Below are positions 17,801 through 40,194 of a DNA stretch of 64,000 nucleotides, piece by piece (the first letter of the stretch is position 1; each line of letters starts with the position of its first letter). Where the stretch lies: contig JALGQZ010000008.1 of assembly GCA_023105745.1 (NCBI GenBank), forward strand, positions 49,776,618 to 49,840,617. Reading direction: 5' to 3'. A program made the translations under genes and the position numbers. The stretch is from Austropuccinia psidii (lineage: Eukaryota; Basidiomycota; Pucciniomycetes; Pucciniales; Sphaerophragmiaceae). The notes under the pieces are model-generated. The model saw only the letters and a program-made list of their open reading frames with translations, was not told the DNA's origin and searched no databases.

Positions 17801-17882
17801 TAACCTTGAAAATCAACTTTGGGATGAAATATTTGAAATGGCCACACTACCAAGAAGAGGACTTTACTTCAATCAAATTTAG
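14877..17882 (+). CDS. Element B gag-protease polyprotein
   Basis: A 1001-codon frame (the true N-terminus is supplied from 14383 by a frame change). A capsid-like region starts KIRAKDYNLWFDGKDVERF and covers about residues 1-200. A CCHC zinc knuckle (C311, C314, H319, C324; CAYCKEEGHTAARC) binds RNA. A long Lys/Glu/Pro-rich linker follows. The aspartic protease has ALVDTGAELNIIP (Asp613-Thr-Gly615) and a VHTVLGRPFLADNN C-terminal motif near 670. After the protease comes an acidic ~300-residue extension ending YIYLPYITFEDIYG. That extension is paralogous to the accessory ORF at 19028-19588. Unlike elements A, C and D, no RT follows; pol lies 10.7 kb away. Confidence 0.9.
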   Translation: MKIRAKDYNLWFDGKDVERFIKKIENIAEIEGASGRDIARQIAFWTKDEEISYHIEGMPGYETADWDQLKVDMKRRWGTVSPERRYRLSSITDLFTRTQQEGGIRNMTQYRKFIGEYEAIITYLKRYQYIQGDINHNQEILASLSTSVQESIYKEIIKDRAMVQALDGGYIIPRLDILKLYIEQDLEAKVLIQQKEFSKPKPAEKKTRFEDESWDEVLKQVKELTQKIKNPPQPEPQPRNEGKESVKEVLNHLKSLSGAVNPARRNWNNNQEQRLPQNNQPYRPRNPLPPFSSSYQPYIPAQMAPRPPLKCAYCKEEGHTAARCTHLAEDLDRRIVRTQGASYLFPSYQRVPMEGNESAKNIVRAFAKEQAELNKKLMEKPTVKPKPEEEIKPTENKSDDKTTSIAHVEDWSNWKPPTISSANDPFESHIGLRQTKQRLERQSQNQEPKKKAEIPGTYIEEEKEEERVIIPTKFQNSNIPKPDQPEEEIENIANKNEDEGIPKQEKKVRKPQKKQVESKLEIEKIIKKIMQQNINLTIEEILRMSPNFVHKLQELSEKDKEKIKSLNSMDLQERLLTFGFKEIPKPKIHYACPLGFMEIFIGKEEYPIRALVDTGAELNIIPEEVAIKASLTTRNLNMNLRGIGGHTTSLVALSEFTPIILASGEETLIHFFIAKGSVHTVLGRPFLADNNIRLEFSHKQGEILSYQEPDGRRLCMPICKPQALGWQTGPPRGMDLCNMAKLVRNAPGKKLQNEKGDNTMINLTQKTQDLSISPKSDKFGQKFQNNQWPNNLKRQLEESTSEDELPNISYNTIYNNEEIFQILVDGNEKINGNPFKPKPKRKKVRFSEHHELSDEEIINDIEKYLKIMEERDKNLKDTYHINFLDRPLKNEEEPYEWQLENPEFIQQPPNEDEETESILENEYNYIYLPYITFEDIYGDEAQEILCKDKYLCHLPGANLNNIQFLYLLTEEGIKGNLENQLWDEIFEMATLPRRGLYFNQI

Positions 17883-18107
17883 GCCCAGTGGTACCTTGGA
17901 TTAAATGGATCAACATATCAAACTGGAAGACTGAAATGGGTTGGAGATGGATATATATTCATTGATGAAGACCTATGGTGGTCAGAATTTCCAGCAGAAC
18001 CAGAAATTGAGGAAATAAATAACTTTGTGGAAGCCCTCAAAGACCTTATTTTGGCCAGATTGCTCAACAGACACTCACCTTTCCCACTTGGGGGAGCTCA
18101 ACTTTGA
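17880..18107 (+). CDS. In-frame continuation of gag beyond TAG
   Basis: After TAG at 17880-17882 the same frame stays open for 74 codons to TGA at 18105-18107 (QWYLGLNGSTYQTG, then GDGYIFIDEDLWWSE). It aligns with the end of the paralogous accessory frame (FEIKNGKISKISTGYIINN), so the ancestral protein continued here. TAG is either a nonsense mutation or a readthrough stop. Confidence 0.65.
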
Positions 18108-18205
18108 GCAAAACCAACAAAATCAAGATTTTTCTCTAAAATGTATCAGTATCACCCATAAAATGTATCATTAGTTTCTTTTTTATTTTATTTTCTTCTC
18201 TATTG

Positions 18206-18234
18206 GGCAGTGACCTCCTGCCTTAACAAAGAAG
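18206..18234 (+). ncRNA. Family 2 pseudoknot, copy 1 (divergent)
   Basis: Stem GGCAG/CTGCC, loop TGA then CCTC, and tail GAAG, which pairs at 3 of 4 positions. It lies between the gag frame and the first 99-codon ORF. Confidence 0.6.
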
Positions 18235-18323
18235 ACATTAATCAACAAATTATTTCTTAAAAAAATAAAATAGTAAAATATAAAAAAAAAAAAACTTACA
18301 AAAATATATCAATCACCTCCACC

Positions 18324-18623
18324 ATGGCCAATTCACCAATTTATGGATCTTATGGGGAAGAATTAATAAAAGAAGAAAAAATTATCAATGAAGAACATCA
18401 TTGGTCACCTGAAGATGAAGATTTCAATAAAGAGAACCTTTGGCACTTTAAGGATACTTCATCAATATCAAGAAACCAAGAAATTGAAGAAATCAAGGAA
18501 TTGCTGAAGATTTTGGAGATTTCTGACAAAACCAATGATCAAATTACTCAAAAGTTAATGGACCAATTAAATTTCAAACCATCAAGGACCATCTTGAAGA
18601 CACATAACAGCTCTAAAAATTAA
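18324..18623 (+). CDS. Accessory acidic ORF, copy 1
   Basis: 99 codons beginning MANSPIYGSYGEELIKEE. It is acidic, with a helical EIEEIKELLKILEISDKTND segment near residues 55-75. I recognise no family. Its paralog at 19876-20175 keeps the frame and most residues, and the start context CCACCATGG is strong. Conservation of an intact frame in both duplicates suggests a real product. Its function is unknown; its place between gag and pol suggests an accessory protein of the element. Confidence 0.65.
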   Translation: MANSPIYGSYGEELIKEEKIINEEHHWSPEDEDFNKENLWHFKDTSSISRNQEIEEIKELLKILEISDKTNDQITQKLMDQLNFKPSRTILKTHNSSKN

Positions 18624-18664
18624 AAATCAAACAAAATAGTCAGATTTAAACTTCAATAATCACT

Positions 18665-18891
18665 AGGCAGTGACCTCCTGCCTTATCAAAGAGGAATATC
18701 AACTCTCATCAAATCAAATCAATAATCCCACTCACCAATAAAAAAACACAATAAATAACCATAAGATCATTAGGCAGTGACCTCCTGCCTTATCAAAGAG
18801 GAAAATCAATTCTTATCAATAAAAATCATCAATTTCACTCACCCAAATCATAAAAATCACTAGGCAGTGACCTCCTGCCTTATCAAAGAGG
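18665..18891 (+). ncRNA. Family 2 pseudoknots, copies 2-4
   Basis: Copies are at 18665-18694, 18772-18801 and 18862-18891. Each has stem AGGCAG/CTGCCT, a loop of TGA plus CCTC, a 7-nt connector TATCAAA, and tail GAGG complementary to CCTC. This is a textbook H-type pseudoknot geometry (S1 6 bp, L1 3 nt, S2 4 bp, L3 7 nt, no spacer). The flanks between copies are unrelated, but the 30-nt core is identical, so the core is what is repeated. It precedes the 19028 ORF. Confidence 0.75.
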
Positions 18892-19027
18892 AATATCCAA
18901 ATTCTTACCCAAAATTATCATCCAAAATCCATTAAACCTACCCTCAAACTATTTTTTATAAATAAATATGATACTATTATCAATTCATCTTACCTTAACA
19001 TCTCAAAATCCACCAAAATCCTACAAA

Positions 19028-19588
19028 ATGGAGTCATGGCCATTACTGGAAAAAAATCCCTGGTCATTGGACACAGATATCAGCTGGGTAGAAGAAAAGG
19101 AAGTCTGGACCAATTACATTAATCAACAATAAATAAATGAAAATCCTGACTGGTTCTTTAAAATAAAACCAGAACCCTGTCCTGATATTTTCACAGTAGT
19201 CCTTCCATACATTGAGTTTGAGGACATCTTTGAAAAAGAAAAATTACCATCAGAAACTATCATTCCTCATCCATGGAAAGAATTACCTGGATTCAAACTC
19301 ACAAAGTATGAATTTTTGGAGTTACTGACCTGGGATGGAGTTGAACGCAACCTTGGAAACAATTACTGGAATGAAACATTTTATATGGATGAAAACCTTA
19401 GAAAATCACTATTTTGGAGGACCTGGGAATGCCAAGACTGGTTCAACCTTCAGGATTTTGAAATTAAAAATGGTAAAATAAGCAAGATCTCAACAGGGTA
19501 TATTATTAATAATTCCAAATGGGACTGCCACTGGGAAGAAACACTTATACCAGCAATATTCAACCTTAGAGGGGTGCAACTAAATTGA
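19028..19588 (+). pseudogene. Accessory ORF paralogous to the gag C-terminus (one in-frame stop)
   Basis: The frame runs from ATG at 19028 to TGA at 19586-19588 (187 codons) with a single in-frame TAA at 19130-19132 (codon 35, following two CAA codons). The body (VVLPYIEFEDIFEKE, ELPGFKLTKYEFLELLTWDGVE, NYWNETFYM) aligns with the gag extension (IYLPYITFEDIYGDE, LPGANLNNIQFLYLLTEEGIK, QLWDEIFEM). So it is a duplicated gag C-terminal domain, Trp- and acid-rich, of unknown role. The stop could be a C-to-T nonsense change or a readthrough stop. Confidence 0.6.
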
Positions 19589-19875
19589 ATACAGAAGAAT
19601 GGAACTCTTTCTGTAAAGACTACTTGTTTCAAAATTTGAAAAGAGAAAAATGCAGGGGAGGAAATTTCATCAAGAATGAATTAGTAAATAAAATACTTGG
19701 CCAAGGGAATTAATCAAAATAAATCTCACCTGCTAAGTCCTCAATTCTTTGTTTAATCATCAATCCTATTTCCATTGATATTATTTTTTATTTAGTTCAT
19801 CAACTTTTTATTTTACCACTTTAAAAAAAAAAAAAAAAAAAAAAAACTTACAAAAATATATCAATCACTTCCACC

Positions 19876-20175
19876 ATGCCCAATTCACCAAATTTTGGAT
19901 CCTATGGGGAAGAATTAATAAAAGAAGATCAAATTAATAATGAAGATTCAATTTTGGAAGCAGAAGATGAAGATTTCAATAAAAAGAACCTTTGGCACTT
20001 TAAGGATACTTCATCAATATCAAGAAACCAAGAAATTGAAGAAATCAAGGAATTGCTGAACATTTTGGAGGTTTCTGACAAAACCAATGATCAAATTACT
20101 CAAGAATTAATGGACCAATTAAATTTCAAACCATCAAGGCCCATCTTAAAGACACATAAAAGTTTTAAAAATTAA
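19876..20175 (+). CDS. Accessory acidic ORF, copy 2
   Basis: 99 codons beginning MPNSPNFGSYGEELIKED. It is a close paralog of 18324-18623 with the same length and end. The central DTSSISRNQEIEEIKELL is identical; the region around residues 20-32 differs most. It is followed by four Family 2 pseudoknots, as copy 1 is followed by three. Confidence 0.65.
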   Translation: MPNSPNFGSYGEELIKEDQINNEDSILEAEDEDFNKKNLWHFKDTSSISRNQEIEEIKELLNILEVSDKTNDQITQELMDQLNFKPSRPILKTHKSFKN

Positions 20176-20216
20176 AAATCAAACAAAATAGTCAGATTTA
20201 AACTTCAATAATCACT

Positions 20217-20442
20217 AGGCAGTGACCTCCTGCCTTATCAAAGAGGAATATCAATTCTCATCAAATCAAATCAATAATCCCACTCACCAATAAAAAAACA
20301 CAATGAATAACCATAAGATCATTAGGCAGTGACCTCCTGCCTTATCAAAGAGGAAAATCAATTCTTATCAATCAAAATAACCAATTTCACTCACCCAAAA
20401 TCAAGCATCACCAGGCAGTGACCTCCTGCCTTATCAAAGAGG
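20217..20442 (+). ncRNA. Family 2 pseudoknots, copies 5-7
   Basis: Copies are at 20217-20246, 20324-20353 and 20413-20442. The same 30-nt core as copies 2-4 is retained exactly, while the surrounding sequence has drifted between the two duplicated units. Confidence 0.75.
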
Positions 20443-20501
20443 AATATCCAAATTCTTACCCAAAAAGTATCATCCAAAACCCTTTGAACTATTAAGCTCT
20501 T

Positions 20502-20530
20502 GACAGTAACTTCCTGCTTCAATAAAGAAT
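20502..20530 (+). ncRNA. Family 2 pseudoknot, copy 8 (divergent)
   Basis: A weaker S1 (CAG/CTG), loop TAACTTC and tail GAAT. TTC pairs with GAA, so a C-G pair of the consensus loop-tail helix is replaced by T-A on both sides. This supports a paired structure. Confidence 0.55.
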
Positions 20531-20666
20531 ATTACCATTTCTTCAAGTTTAAATAATAACACAACAAAAAAGAGGCATCAAAATAAATTTGATACTATTT
20601 TCAATTTAACTTACTTTTAACACTTCAAAAAAATCAAACAACAACCATATAAAAAACCCTAAAACA

Positions 20667-20760
20667 TGGAATCATGGACCTTACCTGAATAAAACACCAG
20701 GTCAATGTCTACAGAAATTATCTGGAATGAGGAATAATGTTGGATCAATACCAATTATCA
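20667..20760 (+). pseudogene. Remnant of the second accessory ORF in unit 2
   Basis: It starts ATGGAATCATGGACCTTACC, parallel to ATGGAGTCATGGCC at 19028. A TAA follows after seven codons, and most of the body is deleted. Confidence 0.5.
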
Positions 20761-20829
20761 AACAAGAATTGGTGAAGAAAATAATTGGTCAAAGGAATTA
20801 ATCAAAATAAATCTCACCTGCTAAGTCCC

Positions 20830-21420
20830 TAATGCTTGGTTTTTCAATCCATCTTTTTTCATTGATATTATTATTTATTTCTTTTATTACTTTACTCTTT
20901 TTTTTCATTTATTTTATTATTATTATTGCATTTTTTTTCAACCTAAAAAAAAAAAAAAAAAGCTTCAATTCATATAAGCTTAGAAAGAAGAATTAAAATA
21001 AAACCTACTTGATATTGAATATGCTTTATAATTATATTTATTATTTTTAAAAGATGAAAAAAAAGTATATAAAAAAAATAAATAAAATAAATAACAAATT
21101 ACTCATTAGTTTCAAGCCAAATCACTTTAGATGATAAATAGAAAAGTGACAGCTTACATGCTATTTTATATTCTATCTCTTATATATATATATTGAACAA
21201 TATATCTCCAAATAACTCAACAAAATAGCATTTACTTAAAGAAATATGAGAAAGAATTAAACACAGACTATGACTTCAGTTTTATTATTGTCAAGAATTA
21301 TTTTAGCCGTCAACCACAGTTTATTTGTTTATTTTATTCAATCTAATATTATTTCTATTTCTTAAATTGTTCCATTTCATTTTGTATTTATTTTTATTTC
21401 TCATTTCAAATAAATTGATA
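20830..21420 (+). other. AT-rich spacer in element B
   Basis: Poly-T and poly-A runs (for example around 20945-20962) and a short TATATATATA run near 21182. I see no gene. Confidence 0.5.
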
Positions 21421-23275
21421 CAGCTAACTGAACAATTTTCTTGGGGCTCTATACACTGATCGTTCAGAGCTCATACAAAATAAAAAAATCCTTTTATCTT
21501 TTATTTTATATCACTATTTCACATGACCAACTTATCTGCCTGATTATACGCTCAATGAAGTTTTTTTTCTTAGGCTTCAAGTTTGGATTGATGACCATGT
21601 TGTAAAAACAAACAAAAAAAACACCAATAGGCGACTTAAAATGAAATTTGAAGCAAAGACACGCGAAAAAGGATTATTTAATCAAAAAGCTAAAGCTTAA
21701 TATTCACTAGCAAAAATAAATATAGTACTATAATATCACATGGAAACAGGGAGGCTGTTCAGAATCACAACAATCAGCAAAGCGTTTTCACGGTAAAGGA
21801 TAAAAAACAACCTAGAAACTGGTGTTGGAGACAAGACAAAACAAAAATAAACGTTTAGTTTACTGCAGTTCAAACACTGGGTTCCTTGAAAGGTATAGCA
21901 TCAGAAATAGTAATGATCATAAAAAATAAATAAATAAAAAGCATGACACACGGGGAATTAGAGTAAAGTTCTAGGCTACTTATACCTGTATCACGACCTC
22001 AGTAACACCTTCTGCCTCACATGATCAATAAACAAACCCTGGAAATACAATCCCTATGTCTCCCGCTCATGACGTGACAAAAGCATGGAAGAAATAGGCC
22101 GCATCACTCAGAAGGAGGTAATGCATAATATGAAGTTTTCCAAATACAGTAACAACTCAATAATAGAAGTAATATGGCAAGCCAAGCGAACCACTGTGGA
22201 TTTAGTTTGGGGAAAGAATTCTACAGCTACCATTACCAAGCTTGGTAGAAGAACAAAGAAAAATAAACATTGAAATGTGACTAGCCGAACAATCGCTGTA
22301 CAATCACATCAGCCTGGTGGGAGCTTGAGATGCAGGATCTTGCGCACTAACAACAGCACTATTGATGCAGATTTGGATTGTGTGGACTTATTTAGCCAAG
22401 CTTGGTGTTACGTCGGAATGTTAAGATCGCAGAAGGCAGAGAAAATAAGATTTATAAGCAGCATGGCCTGGCATGTTCAAACAAAACAAATAACGTGAAA
22501 CAACAAACTGGCTTCCAGCAGTAAAGCTGCAACATAAAAGCCCTCAAGTTCCTCATTATCAGCTCTGATAGCTCCTCAAACATCACATTTTGACAGATGA
22601 AAGCCGAGAAATCTCAACCAGACCTTCCGCTACCTCAAATGAAAGCCTTTGGAGGAGCCAAATAGATACACTGCACTGCATGCAGCTTCATAAACACTTA
22701 AAATATGATGACAGCCCAGAAAGCTACAAGCTGTACTGCATCTTCTGTCTAAACAAAGCTAACAAAATAAAAATTCCATGCATTCAGTCTGAGATCTATC
22801 AGACATCCTCTAATGGTATTCATGCCAAAGTAGCTTGCATCAGAAACCTGCAGGCGGCACAGCCTTTTCTTGGTAAAGCAACAAAGAAAGAAATGATCAC
22901 ATGAGCTGACAACTGGCTTACAGAAGTACAATCACGACATAACGGTCACTCTATAACTCCCTAACATCAGGAAATCACAAAACAGGGATATTCTCACTCA
23001 CGCACTCACAAGAACAATTGATGACAGGTTCAATTTAAATGGAGGAGTTTGCCCGGGGAGGGATGCTACACCATGAAACACTAGTCAATATTGGCATTGC
23101 ACTTGTCACGTTGTAAATGGTCAGGAAAGGCCTAGAAAAGATTATTGCATCGCCGGAGTTACGATGACAAGCCGACATATTGTACTAGACCTCTTGAAGG
23201 TCCGCGAGTGATGGAAACCTCACCTAAGGAAACTACCAACCAAAACCAACTCACCCGATCCATTTCTACATAGTA
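21421..23275 (+). other. Compositionally distinct island inside element B
   Basis: CpG-containing, less AT-rich sequence (for example TTACGATGACAAGCCGACAT near 23160). It contrasts with the A-rich, CpG-poor element around it. Three short open frames (22085-22273, 22277-22498, 22590-22904) have no motif I recognise. It may be captured host or foreign sequence; I could not find clear edges or terminal repeats. Confidence 0.45.
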
Positions 23276-23277
23276 AA

Positions 23278-23480
23278 AGGGTGAAGAAACCCTCTAGTAG
23301 TCAAAACGACCACAACCGACGTAATTCAAATCAGGAATAAGGGTAAAATAACCCTTGATAAGCCTAAAAGAGCTCACCTGAAGCTGTTTGAGCATGAGAG
23401 AGGGCTTATGGAGCCCATTATAGCACCCTACACTCCAATCGATTCAACTATTCAACAAAGTAAAGGGCTGAGAGCACCCT
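23278..23480 (+). repeat. Cluster of short GGG/CCC hairpins
   Basis: AGGGT/ACCCT (23278-23293), AAGGGT/ACCCTT (23339-23356), GGGCT/AGCCC (23402-23416) and AGGG/CCCT (23464-23480), each with a loop of 5-9 nt. The fourth base pair switches between T-A and C-G, so pairing is preserved while sequence changes. They lie just upstream of the Family 1 array and lack its TTAAAC linker. Confidence 0.45.
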
Positions 23481-23662
23481 CATAATAAAAAAAATAAACC
23501 ACCGAAGTAGTTTAAAGCACAATAAAGTGCTTTTCAACAAAATTGGAGATGGAAGCACCCCACCCAAAACCCCTGGAGGGTTGTAACAGTTTCTAGATCA
23601 GCCTGTAAAGCTGACCATCTTCCCCTCTAATAATAATAAAAATAAATAAATAATGAATGAAA

Positions 23663-24260
23663 AGTCCTGAACAAGACTTAAAACTGTTTAATTTCTTTTT
23701 TTATTATTAAAGCTCTATATTACTGTTTTTTTTTCTTTTGATTAATGTATTATAAAAAAAAACAAAAAAAACAAAGAAGCCCTCAGCATGGCTTAAAACT
23801 GCTTAGTTATTTTATAAATTATAATTTTGAGTCTTTAATTTGCTAATGAATTTTTTATTTTTGGATATACTACAGGGTTAAAAAAAAAAAATAAAAAATA
23901 AAAAAAAAATAAAAAAAAAATAAAAAAAAAATAAAAAAAAAATAAAAAAAAAATAAAAAAAAAATAAAAAAAAAATAAAAAAAAAATAAAAAAAAAATAA
24001 AAAAAAAATAAAAAAAAAATAAAAAAAAAATAAAAAAAAAATAAAAAAAAAATAAAAAAAAAATAAAAAAAAAATAAAAAAAAAATAAAAAAAAAATAAA
24101 AAAAAAATAAAAAAAAAATAAAAAAAAAATAAAAAAAAAATAAAAAAAAAATAAAAAAAAAATAAAAAAAAAATAAAAAAAAAATAAAAAAAAAATAAAA
24201 AAAAAATAATAAAAATATAAAAAACAGAAAAAGAGTCCTGAACAAGACTTAAAACTGTTT
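23663..24260 (+). ncRNA. Family 1 (coremin-like) pseudoknots, copies 1-3
   Basis: Copies are at 23663-23690, 23778-23805 and 24234-24260. Copies 1 and 3 have stem AGTC/GACT, loop CTGAACAA and tail TGTT pairing with AACA. Copy 2 has stem AGCC/GGCT, loop CTCAGCAT and tail TGCT pairing with AGCA. The linker is TAAAAC in all three. Confidence 0.75.
23880..24208. repeat. (A9T)n minisatellite, 10-bp unit
   Basis: About 32 near-perfect copies of a 10-bp unit of nine A and one T. It separates Family 1 copies 2 and 3. The long minus-strand frame seen here (F/L/Y only) is a by-product of the repeat. Confidence 0.9.
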
Positions 24261-24327
24261 ATTTCTATTTTCTATTTTTATTATTAAAGCTGGATATTAC
24301 TGAGTTTTTTCTTTGATCAATTTTTTT

Positions 24328-24413
24328 TTAAAAAAAAATAAAAAAAATAAAAAAAATAAAAAAAATAAAAAAAATAAAAAAAATAAAAAAAATAAAAAAA
24401 ATAAAAAATAAAA
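24328..24413. repeat. (A6T)n microsatellite, 7-bp unit
   Basis: About 11 copies of a 7-bp unit, slightly degenerate at the end. It lies between Family 1 copies 3 and 4. Confidence 0.85.
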
Positions 24414-24433
24414 AAATGAAACAAACAATAGAA

Positions 24434-25824
24434 AGCCCTAAGTATGGCTATAAACTGCTGGTTTGAATTTTTCTATCTTGCTTTTTTTTATGCTGATTTT
24501 ATATTTTATATTTTCTAATTAAGACTTATAAAGGAAAGGCCCTCATCAAGGCTTTAAACTGATGATTTCTTTTTAGTATTCTATTTTCTTGATCTGACAT
24601 TTCATATTTTCAATTGCTACAGGGCTACAAAAACAAAAAGCCCTCAGCATGGCTTTAAACTGCTGGTTTTCTTATTTATCTTACTTAATTTAGCTTATTA
24701 ATGATTATTTTTTTCATTCTGCAGGGCTACAAAAAATAAAAAGCCCTCAGCATGGCTTAAAACTGCTTAATTTCATCTATTATCATGATTTAATTAATTT
24801 GACTAACCATGTTTTTTTTATGAAGAAACAGGGCTACAAACAAAAAAAATAATAATAATATAAAAAAAAGAGCCCTCAGTATGGCTTTAAACTGCTGGGT
24901 TTGGTTATTTTAATTAAATCATTTTTTTTATTAATTTTTTATGCTACAGGGCTACAAATAACAGAAAAGCCCTGGGCAAGGCTTTAAACTCCTATTTTAT
25001 CTTTTATGCTTTTATGTTGAATAATAACTATACCAACATATTTGACTTGGATTTTACAGGTATACCACATTAAAAACACTTTCAGGATTTTTTTTAAGCT
25101 TAAGAAAATGCTTTTACAATGAAAATAAGTCCTCAATAAGACTATAAACTTTTGAATATACTTTACAACTTGGCTTTGAAGATAAATCAAAACCAAAAGT
25201 ATCAACAAGAAATCAAGAAATTATCAACAAAAACAATAAACCAAAAATTTCCTCAGCAAGACATTAAACTGCTGGTTTCTGCTTTCATTTTTTATCTTCT
25301 GGCTGTTTATTTTACTTAAAATGATTTTCTATTTTTTTTACAGGGCTTTACAATAATTTAATTAAACAAAAATGCCCTCAGCATGGCTTAAAACTGCTTA
25401 ATTCATTTATGAATTGTGATTTTGATGATTCAAGTGGCTAATTTATTTTTTATTGTTTTTTTTAATATGCTACAGGGCTATAAACAAAAAAAAAGCCCTG
25501 GGCAAGGCTTTAAACTGCTCAATTTTATATTGTTTTATCATTTTAATGACTTAATTATTTTACTGACAATTTTATTCTATTTTTCACAGTTTCTTATCAA
25601 CCAATATATATATAATAACAAGAGAAATATCAATGTATATAACAGAATGGGGGATTAAAAAGGAAAAAGCCCTCAGGATACAAGAAATAACAAATAAGTC
25701 CTCAGCAAGACATTAAACTGCTGGTTTCTTATTTTATTTCAAATTAACAAAAAAAATATTATTGTTTACTTTTTTACAGGGCTCTAAAAAAATAAATGCC
25801 CTCAGCATGGCTTTAAAATTCTGG
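24434..25824 (+). ncRNA. Family 1 (coremin-like) pseudoknots, copies 4-15
   Basis: Copies start at 24434, 24536, 24639, 24742, 24871, 24968, 25128, 25248 (degenerate stem), 25374, 25494, 25698 and 25798. Most have stem AGCC/GGCT or GCC/GGC; 25128 has AGTC/GACT and 25698 GTC/GAC. Loop-tail pairs include CATCA/TGATG (24536), CAGCA/TGCTG (24639, 25698), CAGTA/TGCTG with a G-U (24871) and GGGCA/TGCTC with a G-U (25494). The linker is TTAAAC or a close variant. Many copies follow a T-rich tract ending (T/G)ACAGGGCT, giving an alternative GGGCT/AGCCC pairing. A half copy without its 3' arm is at 25668. Confidence 0.8.
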
Positions 25825-25890
25825 GTATTCAACATTAATAAAATATTTCTCTTATTTTATAGGCTTAAATATGCTTTTAAAGTGAAAATG

Positions 25891-26580
25891 AGTCCTCAAT
25901 AAGACTATAAACTGTTTAAAATAATTATACAACTTGGCTTTGAAGACAAATCAAAACCAAAAGTATTATCAAGAAAAGAAATCAACCAATGGTCCTTGGC
26001 AAGACCATAAACTGCCCACTCAAATTATTAACAATAATCAAAAATAAACCTATGGTCCCTGGAAAGACCATAAACTGCCCCTTCAAGGATCAAGAAATTT
26101 CTCAGGATATCATGAAGAATATCAACAAAAAGAAATAAACCAATGGTCCTTGGCAAGACCATAAACTACCCCTTCAAATATCAAGAAATACCTCCAAATA
26201 TCAACATGAAATCAAGCCAATATCAACAAAAAAAAACAAAAAAACAAAAAGAGAAGCTGTGGTCCTTGGAAAGACCATAAACTGCCCACCACTAAGAATT
26301 CTCAACTAGGACTCAATAAAAAACAACAAACCAAATGTCCTTGGCAAGACCATAAACTGCCCACTCAAATTATCAACAATGATCAAGAAAAAGTAACCAA
26401 AGGTCCTTGACAGGACCATAAACTGCCCACCATTAGAATTATCAACAAGGAATCAAAGCTAAAACACAATCAACCAATGGTCCTTAGCAAGACCATAAAC
26501 TGCCTATTTAAAGTATTCAAAAAGATTGGAAAAGGACTACAAAAGGAGGATAAGTCCTAGGCAAGACTATAAACTACCTA
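25891..26580 (+). ncRNA. Family 1 (coremin-like) pseudoknots, copies 16-24
   Basis: Copies start at 25891, 25991, 26054, 26145, 26261, 26337, 26402, 26479 and 26553. The dominant form has stem GGTC/GACC, loop CTTGGCAA, linker ATAAAC and tail TGCC pairing with GGCA. 25891 has AGTC/GACT with AATA/TGTT (one G-U). 26337 keeps only GTC/GAC. 26553 has AGTC/GACT with TAGG pairing to CCTA in the tail. Several (26054, 26145, 26261, 26402, 26479) have one weakened loop-tail pair. Spacing is 60-110 nt with AT-rich, mostly unrelated filler. Confidence 0.8.
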
Positions 26581-27468
26581 AGGTTTTATTTCCTTTTTTT
26601 TCTGATTTTATTTCATTATAAACAAGTATTAGAAAGATGTACTGACTTGAACCTTTTGAACATATTCTTTTATTTTCTTTTGAATTTATTTATTCATTTT
26701 CACTAAGAATAAGGGTCATATCCCATTCATGAGCTCAAGAATATTTTATTTATTATCTTTATTACACTTTTCCTACTATCACAACAAGAGCCATTAAATT
26801 GGCTCAATTTTTCAATATAAAAAAAAAAAAACTCTACATCAAGTATTTTTTTAAAAAAAAAATGATCAATTTATTTGAAATATTTCTTCAATTACAAGAA
26901 AGTGATTGGAACTTGTTTGAAAAGAAGAAGTATTTGTGCCATGAAGGCATTAATTGAACTCTAATGGAGCTATTTATATTAAAAAACTCATAAATTGATG
27001 ACATAATTTGGGGAATTTACATATTAATAACACCTCAATGTGCTATTTATTCAAAAAAGAATTTAAAAGCCCCCCAAAAAGCAAACAAGAGTTTTTTTTA
27101 AACTGTACAAATTTTTAATTTCACTGTTTATATTTTTTTTCAACAACTCAAATGCATTTATGGGTAACAGAAAATCTGAACCATAAAGGGGATGGACTTG
27201 AAATAAAGTCTGAGTCACAATGATGATTCCAAAAGGAAGAGTTGTGGCATCATAAGGGTCATTATATGAATAAAGGACTCAAATTATGATCACTCAACTA
27301 TGTAATATTAATCATAAATACTCTCAAGAGCACCAATTTTTACTGATTGGCACAACTTACCACCTTTAACCAAACAGTTCCATGATCTTAATTGTGATTC
27401 AGGTTTATTTCATTTAAATTGTGCTTTTTACTCAGATATCTCAGTTAATGGGTATTTTATATTTACAG

Positions 27469-27499
<31 letters not shown>

Positions 27500-27741
27500 A
27501 AAAAAGAAAATAAAAAAAAAATATTTATTGAATCATCATTAAAATAAAATTATGAATATTCACTGTATCATTATTTATCCTCATCAAAATCACTATAAAA
27601 AATAAGGGGTGGGTAAACTTATTTCTTACACTATCCCTTATAGTGGAAGTTTTTGGGGAATGAGAATATATCCTCTTCAAAATTTGAAAACCAACTCAAG
27701 ATTTTTAAATGGAGAGGGGGGCCCTCATCCAAAAAGAATAT

Positions 27742-27774
<33 letters not shown>

Positions 27775-28248
27775 CAAATATTATTAAAAAAAAATATATA
27801 TCAATAAATTAATATTAAAATCAGTTTTTAAATCACCTTATTATTACAATTTTTTATTTTTCATTTCTTTATAACAGGTATAATTCAGGAAAACAAAAGA
27901 ACAAAAGGACATAAATTAATTTGAAGAAATAGAAAGAGAATTGGGAAACAATTCATTATAGGAAAATTATTCACAATACTAAAAACAAAGAAGATTGTTT
28001 ATGAAGAAAAGCAGGAGTTCCTTATGGATTGACCTTTGGACAGCACAAGAACTTGGACACTTCTTTGATTCTGGATTGAAACTCATTTGGAATTCAAGAA
28101 TCATTGGTCAGGATTTATGGACTGAAGGATGACCCACTGGATTAATTATGGACTCAGGACTTACTCAACATGAAGGACTAACAAGATTATGTACAACACT
28201 CAAATCAAATTGCCCTTGGGATTTTAAAGAAGATTGAAGACTCAAGAG
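26581..28248 (+). other. AT-rich spacer in element B between Family 1 sub-arrays
   Basis: No pseudoknot copy or gene is evident. It includes A-rich tracts near 27470-27520 and a run of about 28 A at 27747-27775. The short frame at 27609-27812 runs into that poly-A and is not supported. Confidence 0.55.
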
Positions 28249-28736
28249 GTCCTCAGCATGACACTAAACTGCTTCCCCTGTGGACTTGGGCAGGGAAACA
28301 TATAAAAAATAACAGCCAAGAAGCTGGAGGGGATTGTCCTAGTCAGGAGAAGTGCTGAAGGACCATCTTTGTCCTCAGCATGACAATAAACTGCTCCCTT
28401 TGTGTAACAGGAACAAGGGGTTTCACAGGTGTTTAGCATTATCAAAGTAGCCAAAATGAACAAAGTGAAGTCTCAAGCCATCAATTAAGACAAGAAAACT
28501 CCTTATCAAGAAATAAAACAACCAGAAGAATCTTGCACCAAGTGGGAATCATGAAGATTGAAGAATAAAACAAGAGTCAAGTGGAATCCAAAATAAAGCC
28601 CAAAGGAGCTCAAGAATCAAGATAAGCCCTTGGATTAGGCCAGGAGGTCCTTGCATGACTTAAACTGCAGGACTTGTATACCTAATATACAGGGGTTACA
28701 CACCTAGTTGTAGGTCCTGTATGACCTTAAACTACA
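28249..28736 (+). ncRNA. Family 1 (coremin-like) pseudoknots, copies 25-28, immediately upstream of pol
   Basis: 28249: stem GTC/GAC, loop-tail AGCA/TGCT. 28370: stem TGTC/GACA, AGCA/TGCT. 28646: stem GTC/GAC, a shorter loop CTTGCAT with TGCA pairing to TGCA. 28712: a 5-bp stem AGGTC/GACCT, loop CTGTAT with TGTA pairing to TACA, linker TAAAC. The last copy is closest to the viral coremin form (GTC...GAC, then TTAAACTAC). It ends 98 nt before the pol ATG at 28835. Confidence 0.85.
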
Positions 28737-28834
28737 TTTTTTATGGAAGAAAGAAGAAAAGAAGAATTGTGAAGACCTCAATATTTCAGGACACTAGCAA
28801 ATTCTTGGAAATAATTAAAAATCACTAATTAAAG

Positions 28835-31516
28835 ATGGATCACCAAATTTTAGCAGCCAAATATAAATCAGTCCTGAAGAAGGTGAGACCAGTCAATGAG
28901 CCAATGCCTCAAGACCTTAACCCACCTTTGGAAAGACCACCTTTGTCAAGAGATCCTTATGAAACACCCTTATCACCAAACCCACCCATATTTCAAGAAA
29001 CCTTCAAGGTCACCCATGAAAGACTGCAAGCATTCAATTTTGGCCCACCAGGATGGTTATCAAATGAAGAAATCAATTTGCTCAAAAATGTGATTACCTT
29101 AAGGGAAAAAGCAATAGCTTTCTGTGAAGAAGAAAGAGGATTACTCAAACACTCATATGGAAAACCTTACAAAATACCAGTAATACCTCATGAACCTTGG
29201 CAGAAGAAACCAATTCCCATTCCCAAATCAATTTTACCTCAGTTTACTGAATTAATCAGAGAAAGAATCAGGACTGGACTCTATGAGCAATCCACCTCAA
29301 GCTACACAAGCCCAATCTTTTGTGTGGCCAAATCAAATGGGAAACTCAGAATTGTCCATGACCTTCAAGAACTCAACAAAGTCACCATCAAGGATGCTGG
29401 CTTACCACCTCATATTGAAGAATTTGTAGATGCATTTGCAGGAAGAGCATGCTATGGACTAGGAGATATCATGGGAGGATATGATGAAAGAGAATTAGAT
29501 GTCACTACAAGACCCCTCACAACTTTTGAAACACCCCTTGGAAGGATGCAACTCACAAGACTACCCCAAGGAGCCACAAACTCAGTAGCAGTATACCAAG
29601 CCCAAATGACCTGGATACTTCAAGGAGAAATACCAGAAAGTGTAGGAATTTTTATTGATGATGGAGGAATAAAAGGACCAAGATCACTTTACAACCAAGA
29701 AACACTACCAGAAAACCCCTCAATCAGAAGGTTTATATGGGAATATGCCATAACATTAGAAAGAGTTTTATTCAGGATTGAAGAAGCAGGACTTACTATC
29801 CCAGGATCCAAGTTTGCATGCTGTGTTCCAGCTTTGGACATAGTAGGGCATGTTGTATCATTCAAAGGAAGAACAATCTCAAAACAAAAGATCAACAAGA
29901 TTCAAAATTGGCCAACACCCCTTAACAAGAAGGAAATAAGGGGATTTCTTGGTCTTTGTGCTTATGTAAGGATGTTTATTGAAAACTTCTCACAAGTTGC
30001 ATCACCACTCAGGAGGCTCACCAGAGAAGATGTTGACTGGGACTGGGATCAAAAATGTGAAGAAGCTTTCCATAAGCTCAGAAGAATAGTTGGAGAAGAA
30101 ATAACTCTCAAGAAATTGGATTATGACAAAGGAGCAGGAAAAATTAAGCTAGCAGTAGATTCAAGTTACATTGCTGCAGGAGCAGTACTCACTCAAGAAG
30201 ACAAAGAAGGAAAGGACAGACCAGTATTATATGAATCAATAACTTTTTCAAAATTGGAATCAAAATACTCACACCCCAAATTGGAACTCTGTGGAGTTGC
30301 AAGAATTCTCAAGAAGCTACAAACCATACTTTGGGGACAACATTTTGAATTACAGGTTGATGCCAAGGCCTTAATTGAAATGATAAACACCCCTTGCTTA
30401 CCCAATGCCCCCATGACAAGATGGGTGGCTTTCATTCAGCTATTTTCCTTTGATTTGGTACACAAACCAGGGAAGACCTTCACTATGCCAGATGGGCTAT
30501 CAAGAAGACCAAAAAACTCAGAAGAAGAAAATGAAGATGCACCAGAATTTGATGAAGAAGAAGATTGGATCAAGCCACACCCTGGATTTGGGGCTAAGAA
30601 TGTAAATTCACTCCATTTTTCAGGAGTACAAGTACCAACCAAACAAGAAGGATTTTGGAAGAGAATGCAAGAATACTTAAGTACAATGAAAAAACCACAA
30701 TCAAGTAAAGATGAAGAATTTAGAAGGATAAAAAGAAGGTCATCCAACTTTTTCTTGGAAGATGGCCAACTCAAGAGAAGAAATAACCCTAACCCTCAAT
30801 TGGTGATATCAAGTCAAGAAGTTCAAAACTACATTTTAAAGTTACTCCATGAAGACATGGGCCACAGAGGGGAAAATGAAACTTACAGAAGAATTAAAGC
30901 AAGATTTTGGTGGGAAGGAATGGAGAAATCAGTCAAGAAATGGGTTCAATCTTGCCTAGCCTGCCAAAAGAGAAGTCAAAACTTACAAAGGGAACAAGGA
31001 AGGCCTACAGCAACATCAACAATCTTTGAAAGGGTAAGCATGGATGCAGTCCATATCAAATATGGAAGATGTAAATATATGGTTGTGGCCAGAGATGATT
31101 TTTCAGGATGGCCAGAAACAGTTGGACTAGTCAAATTAACAGCAAAAGCAGTTTCAGAATGGTTCACCTCAGAATGGATATGCAGGTATGGCTCACCAAA
31201 AGAAGTAACTGTTGATGGGGGGCCAGAGTTTGGAAAAGAACTTCAAGATGCAGTAAAGAAAGCAGGATCAAGGATCAGAGTCACCACACCTTATTACCCA
31301 GAGTCTCAAGGAATGGTTGAAAGGGGCCATAAACAACTTAAAGATGCATTAGTCAAGATGTGTGAGAAAATGGAGGAAAATGGAAAAAATATCTACCTTT
31401 GGTTACCTTGGCTGACAGAATCTCCACTAAAAGGACAACTGGTTTCTCACCATATGAACTCCAATTTGGACAACTACCAGTATTACCAATTGACATTGAA
31501 ACAAAAACCTTTTTAG
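28835..31516 (+). CDS. Element B pol: reverse transcriptase, RNase H, integrase
   Basis: An 893-codon frame with its own ATG and no protease. RT: PIFCVAKSNGKLRIVHDLQELN near 160, LPQGATNSVAVYQ near 245, and the active site FIDD (273-276; Phe replaces the usual Tyr of YxDD). RNase H: LAVDSSYIAAGAVL and the closing PDGLSRRP. Integrase: an HHCC zinc domain (LLHEDMGHRGEN ... CLACQKR), then catalytic Asp737 (SMDAVH), Asp794 (TVDGGPEF) and Glu829 (MVERGH), 34 residues apart. The frame shifts near the A6 run at 31384-31389; the integrase C-terminus continues at 31399-31995. Separate, distal placement of RT-IN without protease is unusual. It carries out reverse transcription and integration. Confidence 0.92.
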   Translation: MDHQILAAKYKSVLKKVRPVNEPMPQDLNPPLERPPLSRDPYETPLSPNPPIFQETFKVTHERLQAFNFGPPGWLSNEEINLLKNVITLREKAIAFCEEERGLLKHSYGKPYKIPVIPHEPWQKKPIPIPKSILPQFTELIRERIRTGLYEQSTSSYTSPIFCVAKSNGKLRIVHDLQELNKVTIKDAGLPPHIEEFVDAFAGRACYGLGDIMGGYDERELDVTTRPLTTFETPLGRMQLTRLPQGATNSVAVYQAQMTWILQGEIPESVGIFIDDGGIKGPRSLYNQETLPENPSIRRFIWEYAITLERVLFRIEEAGLTIPGSKFACCVPALDIVGHVVSFKGRTISKQKINKIQNWPTPLNKKEIRGFLGLCAYVRMFIENFSQVASPLRRLTREDVDWDWDQKCEEAFHKLRRIVGEEITLKKLDYDKGAGKIKLAVDSSYIAAGAVLTQEDKEGKDRPVLYESITFSKLESKYSHPKLELCGVARILKKLQTILWGQHFELQVDAKALIEMINTPCLPNAPMTRWVAFIQLFSFDLVHKPGKTFTMPDGLSRRPKNSEEENEDAPEFDEEEDWIKPHPGFGAKNVNSLHFSGVQVPTKQEGFWKRMQEYLSTMKKPQSSKDEEFRRIKRRSSNFFLEDGQLKRRNNPNPQLVISSQEVQNYILKLLHEDMGHRGENETYRRIKARFWWEGMEKSVKKWVQSCLACQKRSQNLQREQGRPTATSTIFERVSMDAVHIKYGRCKYMVVARDDFSGWPETVGLVKLTAKAVSEWFTSEWICRYGSPKEVTVDGGPEFGKELQDAVKKAGSRIRVTTPYYPESQGMVERGHKQLKDALVKMCEKMEENGKNIYLWLPWLTESPLKGQLVSHHMNSNLDNYQYYQLTLKQKPF

Positions 31517-32043: not shown

Positions 32044-34056
32044 TGTGGTATTCCATACCATTTTTTTTTCACCAGGCTCAAGCTCATAGTACCTTATAAC
32101 AGCAGGAAATCCAGCCTACAGGCAGACTTACACTCAAATTTTACACCAAAAGGTCAATTTTACAGCAAGAAGCTGGATTTAACTCATAAAACCATGGCAC
32201 AGGCACCAAAGGGAAGTGTATGTGTTTAAATAACTTATTCAATTTCACTATGCATATGTAAAAAATCAATTTACATATAGCAAACTAGTTACAACAAATA
32301 AGGTACCACCCTTTAAATTACACACCCCACCCAGCTTTACACCCCCTTATAGCCACAGGGCTCATTCAGCAAGAAAAGGACACCTGCATGAATTACACAG
32401 CAACCTAGAACTTAACATAGAAAAGTCACATGATGCAAAGCTCAACTCCATGGAATTCCTGTAATTCATTTACAACACAGCCCAGGAGTACCTTATCTTA
32501 TATCCACAGTAACCCCACTTAAAACCTTAAAACAGAATCAGATTTATTTACACCACTCATCACCTCATTCAAACAAAAGCTAGTTACAACAGCCTGCATG
32601 CAGTACACAATTTTAATTGAATCTCAACCACATGACTATGCACAGCATGTGTCAAACTAAAAAATCACATCATCTCATACATAACAGTAAATTCACCAGT
32701 GCAAGAAATTATCACCTGACCTCATTTTTAAAGTTCAAAAAGAAGAGTAACAACCATGACACCTGCATAAATTACACAGCCACTTCTACCAAGCCTAAAA
32801 TATGACATATGCAAAGAAAATACAAATTCATCATGTGATACTGAACCCACCAACAGCATATCATTTGACAGAAAAAAAGCTGTGCACAAGAAAAATCCTC
32901 AGCCAAAATGAAATCACCTCATGCATGCAAGGAAAATCCAAGAAAATCACATCATAATTAGCTCACCAAAAGACCATCATGTGATGAAAGAAGGCTGTGC
33001 AGAGAAAAATTATCACCAAACCTTAAATCACCTGACCCATGCAAGAAAGGGCCTCACCAAAAATGGAGTCACATGATGAAATCAAGAGGAATTAAAGTGG
33101 AAGAAGACAGCTCCCATGGAGGGACCCCTGGGCTCCCAAAAGGTATAAATAGAGGGGCTCTCTCCACCCAAATTTCAAAATCCCCCCCCCATGAAAATTA
33201 TATCCCATGCAAATTATATCCCCTGCACATTGCAAGCACAGGAATAATTCATCCCTCACCTGGGAGGTAGTCCAGTATATTATAGTAAATTTACTTGCCC
33301 AGTAGCTAAGCTCAGTGGAAGTATAGTGTTGAAGATTACCCAGTAGCTGAGCTCAGTGGAATCTTATTATTATCAAAATAAAAATAAAAATTACCCAGTA
33401 CCCAAGATTAGGGTTACTACTCTATTAAAATATTTTAACTAGTAAAATTAACTTCATTTAACAAGATTTAAAAAAAATAACTTACCCCTTTAAAAAAATT
33501 CAATATCAAAGAACCTTACCTCTTAAATTTGACAAATCCAATTTTATCTTATTATTAAACACTCTCAAAAAATAAAATAACAAACCTTTCAAAAATTATT
33601 TTACTCTATTATAACTTTAACTTAAGAAAATTACTGTTATCAAAACTCATCAAATTTTCCAGAAAACCTTAAATAACCCATCTTACCAAGGATTTAACAC
33701 CAAGAAACAACTCACCTCAATTTAACCAAAAAAAATATTAAAATTAAACAGAAAAGTATTTCATTAAAATCTAAAAATTAACCAAATTACTGAAATTTAT
33801 TTTTTATATTACTTATTGAATAGGTCTGATCTGAGACTGCTGAATTTTTTTTCTTCTGCAGTTGTAAAGCCACTTACTAATTTTATTTTGGTTTGTGAGC
33901 TCCAAGGAAGATTTTGTTCAGTATTTTAGGAGGGGCAGGCAATACACCCTTGCCACCCTTGGTTACAGGAGTTATTAGCAATTCAAAACTAGTTACCTGT
34001 GATTTCCCCCTCCAGGTACTGCCTCATTTTAATCCCACACAAGAGGAGTTCCCACA
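32044..34056 (+). repeat. Element B 3' LTR
   Basis: 2013 bp, collinear with 12087-14098. Among visible differences: one extra T in the T-run after CATACCA, CCC to CCT near 32091, and CACGACTCATGCAG against CAGGGCTCATTCAG. The TATA box is at 33144-33151. Confidence 0.95.
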
Positions 34057-38611: not shown

Positions 38612-38696
38612 TTTTTCTGTTAATTCTTGATTGAATTATGCCCCTTTTAGCTGTTCAGATATGAAAAGTTTCTTTTCTGGACTTTTCTCTTCATTC

Positions 38697-39920: not shown

Positions 39921-40194
39921 TGAATGTAATATTGCAGTAATTAATTCATCTTGTATGGCATAATCTTCTTATAGCATGTCAATTGTCTTGATAAATGACA
40001 TATGGTCATATTTACCTTCTCCTATGAGTTTTGGCTATTCTTTCAATTAAGGTGCTTCTTTCATTAAGACTTGATTATTGTCTTGGTGACTCAGGTCTGT
40101 TATAAATGGATTTGTTAATTCCTCTTTTGGTTTAAAAGGGCTTCTTATGTGAGAAAATGGAGTTGTAAGTTTTGGCATATTTGAGTTGGCTTCA

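What the first reader, a model, noticed from the sequence alone, without database searches (positions are those of the whole stretch)
23663..28736. Array of ~28 covarying pseudoknots resembling coremin Xrn1-resistant RNAs inside a retrotransposon
Each copy reads: stem 5' arm, C-initial loop of 6-8 nt, stem 3' arm, a (N)TTAAAC-like linker, and a tail complementary to the loop. Both helices covary. Stems are AGTC/GACT, AGCC/GGCT, GGTC/GACC, TGTC/GACA and AGGTC/GACCT. Loop-tail pairs are CATCA/TGATG, CAGCA/TGCTG, AACA/TGTT, GGCA/TGCC, TAGG/CCTA and TGTA/TACA. The C opening the loop and the TAAAC linker stay fixed. From memory, the coremin motif of beny- and cucumovirus RNAs has a GUC/GAC stem followed by UUAAACUAC and stalls Xrn1; the copy at 28712 matches this layout. 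A many-copy array in an LTR retrotransposon is new to me. The structure is seen; the function is inferred.
Basis: partly seen in the sequence, partly recalled or inferred. Interest (0 to 1): 0.96.

Follow-up and report, generated by a model that had tools for sequence, protein, structure and literature searches.

The report
Exonuclease-blocking RNA knots, phage to rust
A retrotransposon of a likely rust fungus carries 28 copies of a short sequence, predicted to fold into a tiny RNA knot, that also sits between genes in many phages and bacteria and would likely stop enzymes that eat RNA from its front end.

Summary
Observation confirmed. 28 copies of a 26-28-nt H-type pseudoknot lie at 23663-28738, sense to gag and pol, in the 10.9-kb gap between gag-protease and pol of an LTR retrotransposon of a likely rust fungus. 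Both helices covary (93.2% of 221 cells paired; 0 of 500 shuffles reach it); C, A, AAA and U stay fixed.

Beyond the finding: the same pseudoknot is common in phage contigs and occurs in bacterial and a few archaeal genome records. With the stem left free, 72 of 73 newly fetched viral copies still form it (65 by Watson-Crick pairs), with 13 arm sequences. Viral copies sit between genes, most often 6 nt after a stop codon. Nine viral contigs hold the exact published Xrn1-blocking coremin sequence; where I scanned neighbours, it precedes head scaffold/capsid genes, the same slot as the longer pseudoknot in other phages.

Best reading: a compact 5'->3' exonuclease roadblock (RNase J in bacteria, Xrn1 in eukaryotes), here likely guarding the pol end of the element's RNA. 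The fold is strongly supported; the function is inferred. The rust copies fail one coremin criterion (loop G2) and mostly lack a stable second hairpin, so I do not file them as coremin.

The parts
12087..14098 (+). 5' LTR
   Evidence: TGTGG...CCACA; 98.7% identical to 3' LTR over 2015 aligned positions
14877..17882 (+). gag-protease ORF (1001 aa; retroviral aspartyl protease domain)
17883..28834 (+). 10.9-kb stretch between gag-protease and pol that holds the array
23663..23690 (+). pseudoknot copy 1 (AGTC/GACT; loop CTGAACAA; tail TGTT)
23778..23805 (+). pseudoknot copy 2
24234..24261 (+). pseudoknot copy 3
24434..24461 (+). pseudoknot copy 4
24538..24565 (+). pseudoknot copy 5 (6-bp loop-tail helix TCATCA/TGATGA)
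24639..24666 (+). pseudoknot copy 6
24742..24769 (+). pseudoknot copy 7
24871..24898 (+). pseudoknot copy 8 (next 40 nt fold to -5.6 kcal/mol)
24968..24995 (+). pseudoknot copy 9 (tail partly broken)
25128..25155 (+). pseudoknot copy 10
25248..25275 (+). pseudoknot copy 11 (one stem pair broken)
25373..25400 (+). pseudoknot copy 12 (next 40 nt -6.4)
25494..25521 (+). pseudoknot copy 13
25697..25724 (+). pseudoknot copy 14
25797..25824 (+). pseudoknot copy 15 (degenerate linker and tail)
25891..25918 (+). pseudoknot copy 16
25991..26018 (+). pseudoknot copy 17
26054..26081 (+). pseudoknot copy 18 (next 40 nt -7.2)
26145..26172 (+). pseudoknot copy 19
26261..26288 (+). pseudoknot copy 20
26336..26363 (+). 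pseudoknot copy 21
26402..26429 (+). pseudoknot copy 22
26479..26506 (+). pseudoknot copy 23
26553..26580 (+). pseudoknot copy 24
28248..28275 (+). pseudoknot copy 25, next 40 nt fold to -10.4 kcal/mol
28370..28397 (+). pseudoknot copy 26, next 40 nt -7.6
28646..28671 (+). pseudoknot copy 27 (7-nt loop), next 40 nt -7.3
28712..28738 (+). pseudoknot copy 28 (AGGTC/GACCT, 6-nt loop CTGTAT, tail TACA), last before pol
28835..31516 (+). pol ORF (reverse transcriptase, RNase H, integrase zinc domain; 893 aa)
32044..34056 (+). 3' LTR

Best explanation
Each of the 28 copies is predicted to fold into a 26-28-nt H-type pseudoknot that likely acts as a mechanical roadblock to 5'->3' exoribonucleases (Xrn1 in the fungus), the same device that phages and bacteria would use against RNase J. 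Shown: sequence for a 3-5-bp stem, a loop of 6-8 nt (8 in 26 of 28 copies) that opens with C and ends A-D, a linker ending AAAC and a tail that can pair with the loop; both helices covary in the array and more widely in phage and bacterial copies; viral copies stand in mRNA sense between genes. Inferred: the A-rich linker lies along the stem so that the 5' end enters a closed fold, and a nuclease arriving from the 5' side stalls just before the stem. In phages this would give the downstream cistron or tRNA its own protected 5' end. In the retrotransposon it would stop decay of decapped RNA before it reaches pol; 28 copies in series would act as a fail-safe or as a nuclease trap, and the last four copies, within 590 nt of the pol start, would define pol-bearing decay products.
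For: Covariation of both helices in the array. The rust-only model R1 gives 195 matches at E up to 0.1 in 99 viral loci plus the window, 28 of them its own training copies, and finds the copy in 12 of 12 annotated phage regions, E 5e-8 to 0.03. With the stem unspecified: 72 of 73 newly fetched contexts form the stem (65 by Watson-Crick only), 13 arm sequences. Intergenic placement: of 204 viral contexts, 57 have the stop of a >=100-codon frame 5-8 nt upstream, against 1 on the other strand and 0.4 at random places; 27 of 204 lie inside such a frame against 140 random places. Slot equivalence: exact coremin (Xrn1-resistant in PMC10520033) in 9 viral contigs; of the three whose neighbours I scanned, L336 and L339 have head scaffolding and major head genes downstream, L337 was scanned for the major head only, and L339 has a minor head gene upstream; the long-helix pseudoknot fills that place in Staphylococcus DW2 and Streptococcus Javan271 and, by record labels, Lactobacillus phiEF-1.1 and phage D6E. 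Copies 1-2 nt before tRNA genes (the second labelled pseudo) favour RNA processing over translation. An xrRNA of another class blocks bacterial RNase J1 (PMC5760640, passages). Array copies have diverged far although the LTRs are 98.7% identical.
Against: No exonuclease test exists for this long-helix form in what I read. Loop G2, required in coremin, is in 0 of 28 rust copies; a fold of -5 kcal/mol or below in the next 40 nt is found for 6 of 28, none (0.0) for 6 of 28, and viral copies together are only 0.25 kcal/mol below shuffles in the 30 nt downstream. The published work found loops with G moved off position 2 (CAGAAA, CAAGAA, CAAAGA) unable to stall Xrn1 in the coremin context, though those lacked a long loop-tail helix. 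An uncapped pol RNA would still need cap-independent translation. 28 copies are many more than a simple block needs. The 6-nt spacing after stop codons also fits a ribosome-related role; in the genome matches it is much weaker (12 of 102 with such a stop 6-9 nt upstream). The motif is not absent from gamma/betaproteobacteria (3 of 102 supported genome matches), where RNase J is mostly missing as I recall.
Confidence: 0.55

Rival explanations
1. Translation element: the pseudoknot acts on ribosomes (termination, reinitiation, non-Shine-Dalgarno initiation, or block of scanning), with phage copies set just after stop codons and before start codons, and rust copies tuning or enabling pol translation.
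For: Stop-to-stem spacing peaks at 6 nt (44 of 170) and next starts cluster 22 and 28 nt after the motif (14 and 10 of 146); L105 and L097 hold eight copies each in 14-15 kb, many between a stop and an ATG, with leaders that by eye show no Shine-Dalgarno. Coremin itself stalls scanning ribosomes in vitro (PMC10520033).
Against: Two copies stand 1-2 nt before tRNA genes and a third about 184 nt before one; some follow terminator-like hairpins (by eye; a run of five or more T within 45 nt upstream in 13 of 204 viral contexts), where no translation couples across. In-frame readthrough would add a median of 17 codons, at most 47, for the 31 stops at 6 nt. No ORF of 150 aa or more ends within the rust array.
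Confidence: 0.22
2. Protein-binding array: the repeated pseudoknot binds the element's own Gag (packaging) or soaks up a host RNA-binding protein.
For: 28 copies in one RNA and constant unpaired residues are what a protein site array would show.
Against: The same constant residues are kept in phage, bacterial and exact coremin copies (17 picked copies), which are not expected to share such a protein.
Confidence: 0.12
3. Conformational switch: an upstream AGGRCU arm pairs with the AGYCCU 5' arm of the pseudoknot, so that each unit toggles between a hairpin and the pseudoknot.
For: Upstream 60-mers complement the 5' arm better than those of other copies (score sum 252 against 221, sd 13.6; p 0.011); AGGGCT precedes AGCCCT in five copies and AGGACT precedes AGTCCT in copy 24.
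Against: Strong full matches are not above permutation (8 against 5.6, p 0.13); shared descent of units explains much.
Confidence: 0.05
4. Unselected tandem repeats that happen to look structured.
For: The region is repeat-rich and some units are clear duplications.
Against: Compensatory changes, invariant unpaired residues beside diverged flanks, and the same structure in phages and bacteria.
Confidence: 0.02

Closest known systems
Coremin motif / xrRNA-C of beny-, cucumo- and other RNA viruses (PMC10520033)
   Same: GUC/GAC stem core, loop opening with Y and closing A-D, linker ending AAAC then U; repeats occur in some viruses (figure legend); compact
   Different: Published coremin has loop G2, no loop-tail helix described in the parts read, and a required second hairpin; here loop position 2 is U (27 of 28) or C, a 4-6-bp covarying loop-tail helix is present, and a stable second hairpin is usually missing; carried by phage contigs, bacterial genome records and a retrotransposon instead of RNA viruses, with 28 copies in one element
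Flaviviral xrRNAs (PMC5760640, passages)
   Same: mechanical block; shown there to halt RNase J1 and Dxo1 as well as Xrn1
   Different: larger ring fold; no relation tested here
H-type recoding pseudoknots of luteoviruses and murine leukaemia virus (recalled)
   Same: H-type topology, A-rich linker along stem 1, first loop base C; 6-nt spacing from a stop codon in phages resembles readthrough geometry
   Different: only short in-frame extension behind the stops; found before tRNAs; 28 copies in a non-coding stretch
Pseudoknots in a row: plant-virus upstream pseudoknot domains, tmRNA, type III antitoxin RNAs (recalled; listing only for the first two)
   Same: several pseudoknots in one RNA
   Different: unrelated sequences as far as I recall; not tested

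Membership tests
Coremin / xrRNA-C | hp1 stem with GUC/GAC core | tested here: met
   inner three pairs: G-C in 27, U-A in 18 or C-G in 10, C-G in 28 of 28 copies; so GCC/GGC variants are included
Coremin / xrRNA-C | loop 1 YGAD or YGNNAD | tested here: not met
   Y1 28 of 28, penultimate A 28 of 28, last base not C 28 of 28, but G2 0 of 28 (criteria)
Coremin / xrRNA-C | spacer UUAAACU | tested here: met
   AAA and U invariant, C in 27 of 28; the base before AAA is U or A
Coremin / xrRNA-C | second hairpin directly downstream | tested here: inconclusive
   next 40 nt fold to -5 kcal/mol or below in 6 of 28 (24871, 25373, 26054, 28248, 28370, 28646), 0.0 in 6 of 28, weak in 16; the published minimum is only two G-C pairs, so weak ones are not excluded
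Coremin / xrRNA-C | stalls Xrn1 | not testable with these tools
   needs a nuclease assay
Coremin / xrRNA-C (viral contigs L334-L342) | exact hp1 and spacer followed by a hairpin | tested here: met
   GTCCGAAGAC-NNTAAAC-TAC in 9 contigs by search design; by eye a short hairpin with an (G)AGACA loop follows in 9 of 9, one with a G-U pair
H-type RNA pseudoknot | two interleaved helices, each supported by compensatory change | tested here: met
Known Rfam family | match to one of 4227 covariance models | tested here: not met
   window none at gathering; at E up to 5 one sub-threshold minus-strand snoRNA match in the array region; 10 phage loci only tRNAs; L336 leader three sub-threshold matches
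Stop-codon readthrough pseudoknot | long open frame behind the stop | tested here: not met
   31 stops at 6 nt: median 17 codons, maximum 47
Flaviviral or tombus-type xrRNA | ring fold around the 5' end | not testable with these tools
   no RNA 3D tool

The most novel reading that the evidence does not exclude
One 27-nt pseudoknot fold is a cross-domain 5'->3' exonuclease roadblock: phages and bacteria place it behind stop codons to give single cistrons and tRNAs their own RNase J-proof 5' ends, plant-virus coremin is its trimmed form, and a rust-fungus retrotransposon has stacked 28 of them in front of pol as an Xrn1 barrier or trap.
Probability: 0.5. Interest if true: 0.96.

Novelty: new variant of a known kind. 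Interest (0 to 1): 0.92.

Why it matters
Exonuclease-resistant RNAs are, as far as the papers seen here go, known from RNA viruses of eukaryotes. This would extend them to DNA phages, cellular genomes and a retrotransposon, add bacterial RNase J as a natural target, and give coremin, whose structure PMC10520033 (2023) calls unsolved, a covariation-supported pseudoknot model from more than two hundred natural variants. It makes the question how polycistronic phage mRNAs set different stabilities for neighbouring genes directly testable, for instance for scaffold and capsid genes of Staphylococcus phages.

Tried and rejected
The genome search (own genome) was busy in all 11 tries, so other copies of the element could not be looked at, nor could motif counts by bacterial class. 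Pol protein scans of genome contigs (6 pattern stretches, none confirmed) and viral contigs (none) found no related locus. BLAST of single copies is too insensitive for so short a motif: two other copies from the fetched loci and one rust copy gave 5, 1 and 3 of 50,697 phage records, several of them inside genes; the plasmid search used a wrong stretch of L137 that does not hold the motif, so it says nothing. One match in 5,426 E. coli genomes (E = 4, inside a plasmid gene) is therefore weak support for absence. The coremin leader of L336 matched 2 of 50,697 phage records, one of them Streptococcus phage Javan351 outside annotated features. The 27 Vibrio phage records match inside a coding gene at E = 1 in the rows listed; I did not check them and do not count them as members. 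Productive readthrough was rejected. A general downstream second hairpin was not found. Antitermination elements were considered and set aside, because some copies lie behind a terminator-like hairpin. The whole six-pair loop-tail helix is weaker than its inner four pairs, and a single mis-registered pair served as a negative control (14.3% paired). Paper searches for prior reports (open PMC papers only, no bioRxiv; other searches) showed no phage, bacterial or retrotransposon coremin-like RNA in the rows listed; two searches were poorly aimed, and subscription journals and preprints are not covered.

Patterns fix part of the motif; only free positions were used as evidence. Chance figures for collection scans rest on my guess of the collection's size. 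The 113-context figure mixes loci fetched with a fixed stem (40 contexts), so one search gives the clean 73. The 12 annotated phage regions were picked from the 60 listed BLAST rows.


Full report
What is in the window. The array lies inside an LTR retrotransposon. Two LTRs (12087-14098 and 32044-34056) are 98.7% identical over 2015 aligned positions and are flanked by TTAG on both sides (sequence). A gag-protease frame ends at 17882 and a pol frame (reverse transcriptase, RNase H, integrase zinc domain) opens at 28835. The gap of 10.9 kb between them holds the array. The best pol relatives are unnamed environmental proteins and proteins of the rusts Puccinia striiformis and Austropuccinia psidii (676 proteins, 120 listed; A. 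psidii rows 68-78% identity over 58-70% of the query), so the host is likely a rust fungus; the species is not known to me. The pol frame changes near 31.4-31.5 kb; I describe this and go no further.

The copies. I aligned 28 copies. Layout: stem of 4 pairs (5 in some), loop C-U-N4-A-D (8 nt in 26 of 28, 7 and 6 nt in the last two; position 2 is C in one copy), stem 3' arm, linker ending AAAC, then a tail that pairs with the loop. Fixed in 28 of 28: the C that closes the stem's 5' arm, the C that opens the loop, the penultimate loop A, G and C of the 3' arm, AAA of the linker and the U after it; the linker C in 27. Over both helices 93.2% of 221 cells are paired against 83.3% in shuffles, with 32 cells changed on both sides against 11.1, and none of 500 shuffles reaches these two or the covariation score; two further measures do not exceed shuffles. 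The helix of six loop-tail pairs alone has 81.8% of 165 cells paired, and its two outer pairs are weak. Among the 26 copies with 8-nt loops, the core is 70.6% identical pairwise while four flanking windows are 30-41%. As the two LTRs of this copy are nearly identical, the array is probably much older than this insertion and has been kept through earlier rounds; that last step is inference.

The surprise: the motif is not confined to rust. The 120 loci hold 143 matches, some of them near-duplicates. At positions that the pattern left free, 143 of 143 keep the middle stem pair and 140 of 143 keep at least two further loop-tail pairs. The same pattern in GTDB genomes hit its limit at 116 stretches with 117 matches (about 60 expected by chance, worked out by hand); 109 keep the stem pair and 102 the two further pairs. 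The 102 come from records named Omnitrophota, Clostridia, Deltaproteobacteria, Saccharibacteria, Veillonella, Enterococcus, Gemella, Nostoc, a few archaeal MAGs and others (titles); I did not test whether they lie in prophages. Of 73 distinct contexts in newly fetched loci, 65 form all three stem pairs by Watson-Crick pairing and 72 if G-U is allowed, with 13 different 5' arms; by chance about 1 and 4 would (chance worked out by hand). A structural scanner gave 358 hits in 236 loci against 51 in the same loci read backwards; those loci were fetched with a pattern, so the extra copies carry the weight. A covariance model built from the 28 rust copies alone (stem only) gives 195 matches at E up to 0.1 in 99 viral loci plus the window, 28 of them the training copies, and finds the motif in 12 of 12 annotated phage regions; on the five coremin loci tested it gave only weak matches or none (E 0.2 or higher). 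The window itself has no match outside the array. No Rfam 15 family matched the window or ten phage loci at gathering score, and the L336 leader had sub-threshold matches only.

Where phages put it. Of 204 distinct viral contexts, 57 have the stop codon of a frame of at least 100 codons 5-8 nt upstream, against 1 on the antisense strand and 0.4 at random places; 31 are at exactly 6 nt. The motif lies inside such a frame in 27 of 204 (also 27 on the antisense strand) against 140 of 204 random places. With frames of 70 codons allowed, 44 of 170 upstream stops are at 6 nt, and next starts cluster 22 and 28 nt downstream. In the genome matches the placement is looser: 12 of 102 have such a stop 6-9 nt upstream and 11 of 102 overlap a sense frame of 80 codons or more. 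In L097 and L105 eight copies each lie within 14-15 kb. In annotated phages (141 of 50,697 records match one query copy at E up to 10, 85 of them Staphylococcus; 27 Vibrio records are doubtful) I looked at 12 regions. The copy precedes scaffold and capsid genes in Staphylococcus DW2 and Streptococcus Javan271 (by PHROGs) and, by label, Lactobacillus phiEF-1.1 and D6E; in phig1e it precedes genes labelled minor capsid. It ends 1-2 nt before a tRNA in Arthrobacter Molivia and before a tRNA labelled pseudo in Nostoc NMeng1, and lies about 184 nt before one in Mycobacterium Labelle. In crAss cr7_1 it is before a primase gene; in Synechococcus S-EIVl, S-H35 and Moorella MTATph1 before genes of unknown function. 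PHROG scans of 110 downstream and 110 upstream neighbours (of 146 and 170; at most one per locus) show many families: downstream one unknown family (9), PhoH (5) and head scaffolding (5 and 3 in two families) lead; upstream Hsp20 (5) and ribonucleotide reductase (4). So the motif is not tied to one gene.

The link to coremin. The published Xrn1-resistant coremin sequence (hp1 plus spacer, two positions free) occurs exactly in nine viral contigs (about 2 expected by chance), by eye in one setting: a T-run behind a terminator-like hairpin, the coremin, a small hairpin, further hairpin-plus-AAAC-UG modules and, in the eight contigs with enough sequence beyond, an open frame. I scanned neighbours in three: L336 and L339 have head scaffolding and major head proteins, L337 was scanned for the major head only, and L339 has a minor head protein upstream. 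Their scaffold and capsid PHROGs differ from those of DW2 and Javan271, so lineages with different head genes fill the same operon slot either with coremin or with the long-helix pseudoknot. That exchange is my main argument that they do the same job. In a joint alignment of 17 hand-picked copies (4 rust, 9 phage, 2 bacterial, 2 phage coremin) twelve columns are invariant.

Mechanism. Coremin stalls Xrn1 and scanning ribosomes in vitro; changing the spacer C and U, both kept here, abolishes stalling (PMC10520033, parts 1-4 of 6 read). A flaviviral xrRNA also stops bacterial RNase J1 and yeast Dxo1, which its authors call a general mechanical block (PMC5760640, passages). A fold that stops any 5'->3' nuclease would be useful in phages of RNase J hosts and in a fungal retrotransposon alike. 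In the 102 supported genome matches, 3 come from records named as gamma- or betaproteobacteria (two on one contig) and one from an unspecified proteobacterium, against 3 of the 15 unsupported matches, which I take to mirror the collection (Fisher p 0.027; classes assigned by me from record titles). This fits a need for a 5'->3' exonuclease, but numbers are small. For the retrotransposon I infer that nucleases entering decapped RNA stop at the array, so that pol-bearing 3' parts persist; how such RNA would be translated is open. Of the four copies followed by a fold of -7 kcal/mol or below (26054, 28248, 28370, 28646), three are next to pol; coremin needs a hairpin there.

Doubts. Nothing here measures nuclease resistance. 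Loop G2 is absent and a stable second hairpin is missing from most copies; I suppose that the longer loop-tail helix replaces them. A ribosomal role is the main rival, given the 6-nt spacing. Whether rust, phage and virus copies share descent or are convergent cannot be told from 27 nt.

The confidence moved from 0.56 to 0.55, since the slot argument rests on fewer scanned contigs than first written.

Noticed in passing
window 18207-20530: A second repeated motif in the same element, AGGCAGTGACCTCCTGCCTTATCAAAGAGG, six near-identical copies plus two degenerate ones (by eye); it could also form an H-type pseudoknot (GGCAG/CTGCC stem, CCTC/GAGG loop-tail) and lies around small open frames.
   Followed up: no
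window 18275-18574 and 19827-20126: 300-nt direct duplication, 91% identical, carrying a small open frame that starts MANSP and has a good start context.
   Followed up: no
window 24610-28720: An AGGRCU-like arm within 60 nt upstream complements the AGYCCU 5' arm of many pseudoknot copies, so that an alternative hairpin would exclude the pseudoknot stem; permutation p 0.011, strong full matches not significant.
   Followed up: partly
window 23880-24224 and 24331-24416: Long A-rich tandem arrays inside the pseudoknot array (31.4 units of 11 nt; 9.8 units of 9 nt).
   Followed up: no
window 27707-27721: A polypurine tract (AAATGGAGAGGGGGG) like the one in front of the 3' LTR at about 32030, 1.1 kb before pol; maybe a second priming site or a remnant.
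   Followed up: no
L334-L342: Behind exact coremin, phage leaders hold further tandem mini-modules, short hairpins with an (G)AGACA loop followed by AAAAC-UG or AUAAAC-UG; possibly a still smaller roadblock class.
   Followed up: partly
L097, L105: Viral contigs with eight pseudoknots each in 14-15 kb, many followed by leaders without an obvious Shine-Dalgarno (ACTCAACTCAAC).
   Followed up: partly
L240:2501-2611, L243:2501-2606: The BLAST match to the pseudoknot ends 1-2 nt before phage tRNA genes (the second labelled pseudo).
   Followed up: partly
window 5110-10367 and 36240-41310, minus strand: Two further stretches with Ty3-like pol domains in the window; neither carries the pseudoknot by model search at E up to 0.1.
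   Followed up: partly
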